Origin: Gigantopelta aegis
Taxonomy: Eukaryota > Mollusca > Gastropoda > Neomphalida > Peltospiridae
NCBI RefSeq assembly: GCF_016097555.1
Contig: NC_054702.1
Span: 75,660,679-75,724,678, forward strand
Direction of reading: 5' to 3'
DNA: 64,000 nt
Below are positions 35,201-41,200 of this stretch, piece by piece. How positions within the stretch are numbered: position 1 is the stretch's first letter; each line of letters starts with the position of its first letter. The notes beneath the pieces are model-generated. The model worked only from the letters and a program-made list of their open reading frames with translations, ran no database searches and was not told where the DNA came from. The position numbers and the translations under genes are program-made.

Positions 35201-38200
35201 CAGCTTATTATTATAATTTATATTACTGCCATTTTATACCACACTACATGTATTTGATATCAGGTACTTTAGTTATTTTGTGTTATTTTCGAATCTTTTA
35301 ATACTATTGTTGAAAATGATGTTTGGCATCATTTTGAAAATGTACATATTATAATTATTACAATAGGTATTTGGGGTTTTTAAATAAATAAATGTATTTA
35401 AACTATCGACACACATAGAAGGTAATTCAGTATAATATATATCCACTAAACCTTACAAACTATACAAACTAAATGTAAAAAGAAAGAAATACAATTTATT
35501 CAAATGTTACAACATGTGCAGGGAATATTTAGTTTTTAAAATTTTATTTAGGAACCATTGTTAATTGATTGAAAATTAAAAAGCTGTTATTTAATGTTTA
35601 AAATTGTGTAGCGATCTCAAAACCTTGCATAGTAAATCAAGACGCAATACTGAACAAAATGTTTCCTTATGTTCATAACTCAAATAAAAAGACATTTAGG
35701 ATAGTGGAGGGGTTCGGGATGGAATGTTCTAAAGAAGTGGTCAAAGAAGGTTAAAATAACCATATTGCTTTGTGTTTCAGTTTCTCCTCTTATAATGGTG
35801 GCCTACCTGTCTCTTCACGTGATCCAGAATGATCCGTTAACACAAGCAGCTACTAATGGACTTGGTACTTCATACGCTGTCTGGTTCACCTTTGGCATTG
35901 TCAGAGCCTACAGATGGGTAATTACTGTTACAGTATCATTCATGGTTTTCATCAATTCCCAGAGACCAAAAAGAGTACACAGATAAAGTGTGACCATTAA
36001 AAGTCTGCTGTATTATTTTCAGAAATATATTTATTTAATTATGTCTGTTATAATAGAGGATTCATCACGAGTGTTTTTTAATATGGAAAATATCAACTGA
36101 GTCTATGTTAATCAGTATTTGTCAAGGCTCTAGATTAACTAGACGAGGTTGATATTTTACATATTAAAAAACATGAGTAGCGAATTCTATTTATCCTAGA
36201 TAATACTTCTAAAATAACACAGCATTCGATATTTAGTAAATTACAGTACTAAAGTCCCCTCCATCGGTAATATCACGTCATCATGATTAGCACAAATTAG
36301 TTTGACGTCATGCACTTTAATGAAATCTTATGAAAATGTTACACTGAGGTAAACAGGTCTTGTTGGCTTATAAACAAATGACCCATTCACAGCAATACAT
36401 TATGACCTAGATACCGTATAAATTTGCATATACCTTTAAATTTGCATACCATTATTAACCGTGTTAATACCCTAAATTATCACATGAGTTTATAACATGG
36501 ATATCACGGATAAATAGAGGATATTTCATGTTTTTTATCAAATATGATTTATATCTCATCGAGTGAAGTTTGCAATCATATCTCATGAGTGGCGCTTGTG
36601 CAAACTTTACTCGAGATATAAATCATATTTGACAAAAACATGAAATTTTCTAATTATTATATGACTTTTGGCAATTTACCTTTATTTTTAAAATGCCAGC
36701 AGCAAAATCGTTCCGGCTTTCTTACAGTAAAGATAACACTTTCTACACTGATGATAACACATTTTAGAGTGAAATAGTGAAATTTTCACTATAAAATGTG
36801 TTATCGTTATTGAGTTACTGATAACACTTTTATTTCACTGATATTTTAAGATATTTCACTAAATGTTATATAATAAATTAATTTAACAATGGTGTACCAC
36901 ATCAATCGGTGGCCTGAAAACATTTGAAGTTTGATTTACTCGCATTAATTTTCCCAATCCCATCAGACGTGGGACACTGTCAAAATATCCCAAATAAATC
37001 CCAATCCCTGGTCTTTTTTTTAATATGGAAGAGTATCATATATCTTTATTGTTTAACCATATTTAGGTGATATTTGAATTTTTTTATCAAACAGTTAGTC
37101 TGTAATATATGCCTTTTTGATAATAAGTGAACATTTTAAGTCAAGATAGTTGGTACAAGTATTCCAGTTCTATTTTAATTTGTCATCACATATAAAATTT
37201 GTAAATCTTTCTTTGTATCATTGTTGTGATTCAGGTATGGCAAAGCACGGTTCATTCTCTAACCGAAATATCCATTGTGCACATAGTCGTCATTGCACTG
37301 CCTGGCAACAGCATTATTAGCACGTGGGGTATTCCACTCCTCCTCCTGATAACAGGACTGTGTCGAGACCGATTCTACCAGCTGCTCAACAAACTGTACT
37401 TCTTCATCGTCCTGCTGATAACTTCGTGGACGGACAAGAAACAACGCCTCGGCATGACGGCCACCTTGATTTTTCTCTCACTACTTTTCTTCCCTGTCGT
37501 GTTTGCTGTTATTACTGTGGCTGCCATCTTGAGTGCACCTTTGCTGCCATTGTTTACGCTGCCACTGTTTTTCATCGGATTTCCTCGTCCTCAGAAGTTC
37601 TGGCCAGAAGGTGTGGGTGCCTCAGCAAATGTGTGTTCAGATTCTGTCTACTATAAACAGTTTGCACCTCAGTTTGCAAGGAGCTTACGAACAGCTTTCG
37701 CAAATGGCAGTTTAGGTGAGAATGATATTTTTTTGGAAAATACAGCTTTTTAAATGTTACACGAGTTTTAATTGATGTAGTTAAATATGAATGTTTTTTT
37801 TGTTTTTAAAAATCACTAAATGTCAGTGTTTAATTTGTGTACAGCAAAACATTAGGTTTTTTAAAGAGAATGTTTTTTGTAACTATTTTAGTGTTAAAAT
37901 GTACCATGTGGATTGATCATTGAAATTATAGTAAGATTTTTATTTCCAAAATATAATCAATGAAATCAGAAATGTGGTTCTTGTTAAGTTGTAAAATATT
38001 TATTTATCTTTCTTTTTTTATTTCAGTATTCCAGGATTAGCATGTACCAGCATCAGTTTTGTAGTATAACATTGAAAAACAAAAAGTGGTTATGAAGTAA
38101 AATTTAAACAATTTTCACCACAACTCTTTTTGCGAATGTAATATGTGTGTTGTGTATTTGTTACAGAAGAACCGAAGCCAGGTAATCACTACCTGGTATG

Positions 38201-41200
38201 ATTTCAAGACTGTCTTATCTGGCTGATGTAATGTGTGTGTTGTGTATTTGTTACAGAAGAACCGAAGCCAGGTAATCACTACCTGGTATGATTTCAAGAC
38301 TGTCTTATCTGGCTGATGTAATGTGTGTGTTGTGTATTTGTTACAGAAGAACCGAAGCCAGGTAATCACTACCTGGTATGATTTCAAGACTGTCTCAACT
38401 GGCTGATGTAATGTGTGTGTTGTGTATTTGTTACAGAAGAACCGAAGCCAGGTAATCACTACCTGGTATGATTTCAAGACTGTCTCAACTGGCTGATGTA
38501 ATGTGTGTGTTGTGTATTTGTTACAGAAGAACCGAAGCCAGGTAATCACTACCTGGTATGATTTCAAGACTGTCTTATCTGGCTGATGTAATGTGTGTGT
38601 TGTGTATTTGTTACAGAAGAACCGAAGCCAGGTAATCACTACCTGGTATGATTTCAAGACTGTCTTATCTGGCTGATGTAATGTGTGTGTTGTGTATTTG
38701 TTACAGAAGAACCGAAGCCAGGTAATCACTACCTGGTATGATTTCAAGACTGTCTCAACTGGCTGATGTAATGTGTGTGTTGTGTATTTGTTACAGAAGA
38801 ACCGAAGCCAGGTAATCACTACCTGGTATGATTTCAAGACTGTCTCAACTGGCTGATGTAATGTGTGTGTGGTGTATTTGTTACAGAAGAACCGAAGCCA
38901 GGTAATCACTACCTGGTATGATTTCAAGACTGTCTCATCTGGCTGATGTAATGTGTGTGTTGTGTATTTGTTACAGAAGAACCGAAGCCAGGTAATCACT
39001 ACCTGGTATGATTTCAAGACTGTCTCATCTGGCTGATGTAATATGTGTGTTGTGTATTTGTTACAGAAGAACCGAAGCCAGGTAATCACTACCTGGTATG
39101 ATTTCAAGACTGTCTTATCTGGCTGATGTAATGTGTGTGTTGTGTATTTGTTACAGGAGAACCGAAGCCAGGTAATCACTACCTGGTATGATTTCAAGAC
39201 TGTCTTATCTGGCTGATGTAATGTGTATGTTGTGTATTTGTTACAGGAGAACCGAAGCCAGGTAATCACTACCTGGTATGATTTCAAGACTGTCTTATCT
39301 GGCTGATGTAATGTGTATGTTGTGTATTTGTTACAGGAGAACCGAAGCCAGGTAATCACTACCTGGTATGATTTCAAGACTGTCTTATCTGGCTGATGTA
39401 ATGTGTATGTTGTGTATTTGTTACAGGAGAACCGAAGCCAGGTAATCACTACCTGGTATGATTTCAAGACCGTCTCATCTGGCTGATGTAATGTGTGTGT
39501 TGTGTATTTGTTACAGAAGAACCGAAGCCAGGTAATCACTACCTGGTATGATTTCAAGACTGTCTCATCTGGCTGATGTAATGTGTGTGTTGTGTATTTG
39601 TTACAGAAGAACCAAAGCCAGGTAATCACTACCTGGTATGATTTCAAGACTGTCTCATCTGGCTGATGTAATGTGTGTGTTGTGTATTTGTTACAGGAGA
39701 ACCGAAGCCAGGCAATCACTACCTGGTATGATTTCAAGACTGTCTCATCTGGCTGATGTAATGTGGGTGTTGTGTATTTGTTACAGGAGAACCGAAGCCA
39801 GGCAATCACTACCTGGTATGATTTCAAGACTGTCTCATCTGGCTGATGTAATGTGTGTGTTGTGTATTTGTTACAGGAGAACCGAAGCCAGGCAATCACT
39901 ACCTGGTATGATTTCAAGACTGTCTCATCTGGCTGATGTAATGTGTGTGTTGTGTATTTGTTACAGGAGAACCGAAGCCAGGCAATCACTACTTGGTGCG
40001 GTTTCAAGACCGTCTTGTCTGACTGATGTAATGTGTGTGTTGTGTATTTGTTACAGGAGAACCGAAGCCAGACAATCACTACTTGGTGCGGTTTCAAGAC
40101 CGTCTCGTCTGACTGATGTAATGTGTGTGTGGTGTATTTGTTACAGGAGAACCGAAGCCAGGCAGTCACTACTTGGTGCGGTTTCAAGACCGTCTCGTCT
40201 GACTGATGTAATGTGTGTGTTGTGTATTTGTTACAGGAGAACCGAAGCCAGGCAATCACTACTTGGTGCGGTTTCAAGACCGTCTCATCTGACTGATGTA
40301 ATGTGTGTGTGGTGTATTTGTTACAGGAGAACCGAAGCCAGGCAGTCACTACTTGGTGCAGTTTCAAGACCATCTCTTCTGACTGATGTAATGTGTGTGT
40401 TGTGTATTTGTTACAGGAGAACCGAAGCCAGGCAATCACTACTTGGTGCGGTTTCAAGACCGTCTTGTCTGGCTAATGATCCTGGAACGAGGAGCGGGTT
40501 TCTGCACAGTCAACGTCAAAGGCCTTGAACTTCAGGAAACTTCCTGCCACACAGCTGAAGCAGCACGACTGGACGACATTTTTGAAATGGCATTCGAAAA
40601 AGAGGGTGGTTTCTCTCCATGTTCTTTCAATAAATACCCCATGCACACATTAACACCTGTAGACTCAGCTTCAGTGGACACGTATTCCGATGCTCGAAAT
40701 GTACTCACAGGGGTGATAGATATACCTCACAGTTTTGCCATTACGATGGGTTATTTTGTTAAGAGCTTGGTATGGCTCATTTTACAGCATGTAAATAAGA
40801 TGAAGAAGAGAGAGGAGAAGATGAAAAAGCCATCACTGACGCTGGTGACAACAAAGAATGAGAACAAACGTGCAGAAGCCATGCAGGAAATCAACCACAA
40901 TCATCACACATCTGACCTCAACAACAAGCGTAATAATGACAGAGTTGTGCCAGTGAAAAGTACTTCCATAAAAAATAATCTCGGACCATTCGAAAATCCA
41001 TCCCGTCCTTCATCGGGACAGGGGCCAAAGACATCCAGGAAGTCATCGGTTTCTTCATCTATTCATAGCTTCACCGACAGTATTTGGTCAGACGATTTTG
41101 ATGCAAAAATTAGTGACAACAGGAAGAGAGTCAATGTCGTTAGGACCTCTTATAGAAACATGGCATCGTCAGTTCCAGACAAAACTGGTCCAAAGACATT

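What the first reader, a model, noticed from the sequence alone, without database searches (positions are those of the whole stretch)
38135..40474. One 3' splice site of PCNX4 multiplied 26 times in tandem
Seen: a 90-bp unit made of 32 intron bases ending in TTGTTACAG and 58 exon bases is repeated 26 times, and the last unit is the real start of PCNX4 exon 6. The gene is otherwise intact and conserved, so it presumably still splices correctly although 25 near-identical acceptors come first. Inference: splicing must either skip 25 equal sites or be tuned by them. Upstream choices put a stop within 12 or 18 codons, so array length could set the amount of productive mRNA, a kind of rheostat. I know of no described case of a minisatellite whose unit is exactly an intron-exon boundary at this copy number.
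Basis: partly seen in the sequence, partly recalled or inferred. Interest (0 to 1): 0.88.

Follow-up and report, generated by a model that had tools for sequence, protein, structure and literature searches.

The report
Splice-acceptor minisatellite in PCNX4-like gene
A 90-base piece spanning the start of one exon of a pecanex-type gene has been copied 26 times in a row; this is real, but it belongs to a described kind of repeat (the amphioxus "mirages", with human donor-side counterparts) that normal splicing was reported to tolerate.

Summary
Window 38136-40478 is a 26 x 90-bp array without indels, and every unit carries the acceptor TTGTTACAG. The 26th acceptor (exon from 40417) is the only one that keeps an otherwise intact nine-exon pecanex gene open (1277 aa, all junctions GT-AG).

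The claim that no such case is described does not hold. [quoted passage not shown] The BflGb6 case is acceptor-side, and RT-PCR suggested regular splicing is undisturbed. On the donor side, human ABCA7 has a 25-bp VNTR with 12 to about 427 units that starts at the exon 18 donor, and IFI6 has a donor minisatellite.

Most likely this is a tolerated mirage: the last acceptor is used, the array leaves with intron 5, and leaky decoy use gives early-stop mRNA. The rheostat idea is possible but untested.

Its score exceeds those of four of the gene's eight own donors.

Novelty: new member of a known kind. No RNA, reads or relatives could be examined.

The parts
32247..44390 (+). Pecanex-family gene (PCNX4-like), 9 coding exons: 32247-32971, 33533-33694, 34643-35175, 35781-35917, 37235-37715, 40417-41652, 42285-42405, 43407-43593, 44139-44390; 1277 aa
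   Evidence: Hand-built gene model, all junctions GT-AG in matching phase, no internal stop; Pecanex_C E 1e-32 at residues 1100-1270
37235..37715 (+). Exon 5, donor TAG|GTGAGA at 37715/37716, phase 1
38136..40478 (+). Array of 26 x 90-bp units, each 31 intron bases ending TTGTTACAG plus 59 exon bases
38136..39665 (+). Units 1-17 (zone A): mean 2.4% apart; in-frame TGA; donor-like CAG|GTAATC 15 nt after the acceptor; perfect 7-bp hairpin CCAGGTA/TACCTGG over that donor
39666..39935 (+). Units 18-20 (zone B): GGCAATC (no GT donor there) but still the TGA
39936..40385 (+). Units 21-25 (zone C): exon-like, 5.1% from the real unit, in-frame stop near the unit end
40386..40475 (+). Unit 26: authentic 3' splice site and first 59 bases of exon 6
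40417..41652 (+). Exon 6 (1236 nt), donor AAG|GTATGT

Best explanation
This is a mirage-type minisatellite: a 90-bp tandem duplication straddling the acceptor of exon 6, probably seeded at a 3-4 base microhomology (ATG/AATG), later amplified and homogenised by unequal exchange or slippage. The gene still works because splicing mainly joins exon 5 to the last acceptor, the one attached to the real exon body and its strong donor, so 25 units (2250 bp) are removed as part of a 2701-nt intron that would be 451 nt without them. Occasional use of an upstream decoy gives an early-stop mRNA, expected to be degraded by NMD. Shown here: the array, the gene model, the coding consequence of each acceptor. 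Inferred: which acceptor is used, NMD, the amplification mechanism.
For: Array and register. Only acceptor 26 keeps the protein open, and the gene is otherwise intact. Unit divergence (units 1-17 2.4% apart, about 11% from the real unit; block 2-4 identical to 6-8) shows a long-lived, turning-over minisatellite beside a still intact gene. Concerted evolution with the boundary units left out matches the published amphioxus mirage BflGb6, where RT-PCR suggested regular splicing (PMC3087553); the same is stated for Adh and TnC mirages (PMC3902484). All eight introns would exceed 450 nt even without the array. PMC9225289 places exon definition at flanking introns longer than 200-250 nt and finds the preference for upstream 3' splice sites reduced there.
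Against: No RNA was available. Classical duplicated-site experiments favour the upstream 3' splice site when sites are equal (summarised in PMC9225289), and most decoys score about as well as the real site (2.1-4.8 against 4.7). Exon 6 is 1236 nt, long for exon definition. If decoys are tried in order, each must be used less than 2.7% of the time for half the mRNA to be productive. The last 15 intron bases are invariant in all 26 copies (hypergeometric P 0.012, region chosen after the fact), so the decoys have not decayed.
Confidence: 0.72

Rival explanations
1. Rheostat: a sizeable and length-dependent share of transcripts use upstream acceptors and are lost to NMD, so array length sets the amount of PCNX4-like protein.
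For: All 25 upstream choices give early stops; decoy acceptors score close to the real one; in ABCA7, VNTR length at a donor correlates with expression and exon 19 skipping (PMC5954066).
Against: The acceptor-side amphioxus mirage was reported not to disturb splicing. In ABCA7 the unit-retention isoform itself did not change with length. An intact gene beside a diverged, old array suggests a small effect.
Confidence: 0.13
2. In-frame microexons: units 1-17 act as 15-nt exons (acceptor + 15 nt + donor CAG|GTAATC) separated by 75-nt introns, adding one or more (E/G)EPKP pentapeptides, or rescuing mis-spliced transcripts by resplicing in frame.
For: The donor scores 3.28, above the gene's own donors of exons 3, 4, 7 and 8; 15 nt and phase 1 to phase 1 keep the frame; PMC3087553 proposes exon and intron gain from mirages by a similar route.
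Against: The GT can arise by a single synonymous C-to-T change and is absent from units 18-26. The donor lies in a -9.1 kcal/mol hairpin. 15-nt exons are hard to define. No RNA evidence.
Confidence: 0.05
3. Assembly artefact: the true copy number is different, or the array is a stutter.
For: Tandem arrays are error-prone; one amphioxus mirage was aberrantly assembled in the draft genome.
Against: Units differ by ordered, zoned substitutions, which an assembler's stutter would not create. The exact number 26 is not verified.
Confidence: 0.06
4. The upstream-most acceptor is mainly used, so this allele is largely inactive.
For: Proximity rule for equal 3' splice sites under intron definition.
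Against: Gene still fully open despite about 11% divergence between distal units and the real unit.
Confidence: 0.04

Closest known systems
Amphioxus 'mirages' (BflGb6, BflGb9, Adh3, TnC, PGBD5; PMC3087553, PMC3902484)
   Same: Minisatellite-like tandem repeats whose unit straddles an intron-exon boundary, acceptor-side in BflGb6; concerted evolution with boundary units excluded; many units carry AG/GT splice signals
   Different: Here 26 copies of 90 bp in a pecanex gene against 3 and 6 copies of 150-160 bp in the two BflGb6 haplotypes; organism of the window unknown (GC about 34%); no RNA or second haplotype seen
Human ABCA7 intron 18 VNTR (PMC5954066)
   Same: Boundary minisatellite whose units offer splice sites; retention of one unit gives a premature stop
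   Different: Donor side, 25-bp unit starting at the donor, 12 to about 427 copies; length correlates with exon 19 skipping
Human IFI6 (6-16) minisatellite (Turri et al. 1995, known here through PMC4526556)
   Same: Repeat units at an exon end provide several splice sites
   Different: Donor side; downstream units are used productively to make three mRNAs
Intron gain by tandem duplication of proto-splice sites (PMC2891723, PMC4974935)
   Same: Duplication giving an acceptor plus a donor per unit, as in units 1-17
   Different: There a duplication within coding sequence; here an existing acceptor is multiplied and no new intron is demonstrated

Membership tests
Mirage (tandemly duplicated intron-exon boundary) | Tandem repeat unit contains both intron end and exon start | tested here: met
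   31 intron + 59 exon bases in 26 units
Mirage (tandemly duplicated intron-exon boundary) | Minisatellite-size units with concerted evolution, boundary copies excluded | tested here: met
   90 bp; zones A/B/C with 2.4%, 0.7%, 3.9% internal and up to 12.2% mutual mean divergence
Mirage (tandemly duplicated intron-exon boundary) | Authentic boundary is the copy adjoining the exon and the gene stays intact | tested here: met
Mirage (tandemly duplicated intron-exon boundary) | Regular splicing undisturbed (RT-PCR) | not testable with these tools
   no RNA data held
Mirage (tandemly duplicated intron-exon boundary) | Copy number varies between haplotypes or somatically | not testable with these tools
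   one sequence only; identical block units 2-4 = 6-8 hints at recent turnover
Mirage (tandemly duplicated intron-exon boundary) | Reported so far from cephalochordates | tested here: inconclusive
   organism not given; GC about 34%; no genome held
Pecanex family | Pecanex_C domain | tested here: met
   PF05041, E 1e-32, residues 1100-1270
PCNX4 subfamily | Closest to PCNX4 rather than PCNX1-3 | not tested
   no animal protein collection held; assignment rests on recall of the vertebrate protein

The most novel reading that the evidence does not exclude
The array is a nascent multi-intron: units 1-17 function as in-frame 15-nt microexons, so the same minisatellite yields a ladder of proteins with different numbers of (E/G)EPKP repeats plus early-stop RNAs, with copy number setting the mixture.
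Probability: 0.05. Interest if true: 0.8.

Novelty: new member of a known kind. Interest (0 to 1): 0.4.

Why it matters
It is a natural version of the classical duplicated-splice-site experiment, with 25 near-identical decoy acceptors before the real one in an intact gene. RNA from this animal would show how the spliceosome chooses among equal sites and whether boundary minisatellites feed intron gain or tune expression. As a kind of structure it is already described.

Tried and rejected
No genome is held for the window, so relatives, copy-number variation and other mirages in the genome could not be examined. Viral contigs: no match to the unit. PDB: no sequence match for exons 5-6. Pfam on exon 1 and on exons 5-6 alone: nothing; only the C-terminal domain matches. 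RNA structure as the reason for skipping the decoys: whole units fold no better than shuffles, and local accessibility does not favour unit 26 over the decoys; rejected. Selection on the acceptors: the invariant last 15 intron bases give P 0.012 but the region was picked afterwards, and the whole intron part gives P 0.07; not relied on. Minus-strand 785-aa ORF as a gene: explained by the period being a multiple of three (62% of shuffled units have an open frame); its Pfam hits have no single stretch passing and are repeat-sum artefacts. The 1995 IFI6 and 2002 Adh papers are not held; they are cited through other papers.

Full report
OBSERVATION. TRF finds one outstanding array in the window, 38136-40478, 26.0 copies of 90 bp, 97% matches and no indels. 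The acceptor TTGTTACAG ends at 38166 and every 90 bases after that up to 40416, 26 times, and nowhere else on the + strand of the window; the longer motif with the first exon bases is also found 26 times against 0 expected.

GENE. I built the gene by hand: nine coding exons from 32247 to 44390, 1277 codons plus stop, every junction GT-AG with matching phase and no internal stop. The C-terminus matches Pecanex_C at E 1e-32. PCNX4 rather than PCNX1-3 is recalled from the vertebrate protein, not tested. With the last acceptor, intron 5 is 2701 nt; with only one unit it would be 451 nt.

CONSEQUENCE OF EACH ACCEPTOR. Exon 5 ends in phase 1. Joined to unit 26 the frame runs on (...[31 protein letters not shown]...). 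Joined to units 1-20 it stops after 11 codons at TGA, and to units 21-25 after 18 codons. Three further introns follow exon 6, so such mRNAs would be expected to be NMD targets (established rule, not tested here).

In units 1-17 a change that would be synonymous in the real exon, GGC to GGT, creates CAG|GTAATC exactly 15 nt after the acceptor. By a simple position matrix with frequencies recalled for human sites, it scores 3.28, above the gene's own donors of exons 3, 4, 7 and 8 (1.93, 0.61, 0.79, 3.21). Each of these units is thus a potential 15-nt exon followed by a 75-nt intron, in frame, adding EEPKP or GEPKP. The same change completes a perfect 7-bp hairpin (CCAGGTA-ATCAC-TACCTGG, -9.1 kcal/mol; units 18-20 -5.5; units 21-26 0 to -3.6), which would hide that donor; a perfect stem of this kind turns up in about 3% of shuffled units. 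A branch-point-like CTGAT, made by the duplication junction, lies about 31 nt before each acceptor from unit 2 on (sequence shown directly; its use is inference).

HISTORY. Units fall into zones: 1-17 (mean 2.4% apart), 18-20, and 21-25 (3.9% apart, 5.1% from the real unit). Zones A and C differ by 12.2%. Units 2-4 equal units 6-8. The most homogeneous copies lie upstream and the more diverged ones next to the exon. The duplication ends share ATG or AATG (intron GCGAATGTAAT, exon GGCTAATGATCC). This looks like ordinary minisatellite growth. The divergence suggests the array has coexisted with an intact gene for a long time; no date is given because no rate is known.

MECHANISM. The most likely outcome is use of the last acceptor, with the array spliced out as intron. 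The strongest support is the published precedent: amphioxus mirages, including the acceptor-side BflGb6 array with 6 and 3 units in two haplotypes, were judged from RT-PCR not to interfere with regular splicing (PMC3087553), and Adh and TnC mirages are reported to give no aberrant mRNAs (PMC3902484). A plausible reason is that all introns here exceed 450 nt even without the array; long flanking introns go with exon definition, where the upstream-acceptor preference is reduced (PMC9225289). Against this, equal duplicated acceptors in vitro favour the upstream one, and exon 6 is long. If decoys are met in order, average use per decoy must be below 2.7% for half the mRNA to be productive, or below 0.42% for 90%. 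RNA structure does not explain the discrimination.

KNOWN KINDS. Besides mirages, the ABCA7 VNTR starts at the exon 18 donor, has 12 to about 427 units, gives a one-unit retention isoform with a premature stop, and its length correlates with exon 19 skipping and expression (PMC5954066). IFI6 uses repeat units as alternative donors (PMC4526556). What stands out here is the acceptor side combined with 26 near-identical copies; within the papers searched I found no acceptor-side case with more.

LIMITS. The organism is not known, no genome is held, and no animal sequence collection, RNA or reads were available. Copy number, usage and variability therefore remain unverified. Splice-site scores rest on recalled human frequencies and are only a rough ranking.

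Noticed in passing
window 38118-40472, minus strand: A 785-aa open frame runs through the whole array on the minus strand; it follows from the 90-bp period with one open frame (62% of shuffled units have one) and its Pfam hits are repeat artefacts.
   Followed up: yes
window 38178-38196 and the same place in units 1-17: The imperfect inverted repeat of the exon-like unit became perfect, apparently in two steps (T to C at +27, then C to T at +17), as in quasipalindrome correction; could be chance.
   Followed up: partly
window 49405-49782: Second minisatellite, 8 copies of 47 bp at 97%, outside the gene.
   Followed up: no
window 42683-42896: Two diverged copies of a 103-bp unit within intron 7 of the same gene, not at a splice site.
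   Followed up: no
window 7769-8053 (+) and 10829-12004 (+): An exon of a PfkB-type carbohydrate kinase (E 2e-16) and a 392-aa open frame with about six C2H2 zinc fingers.
   Followed up: partly
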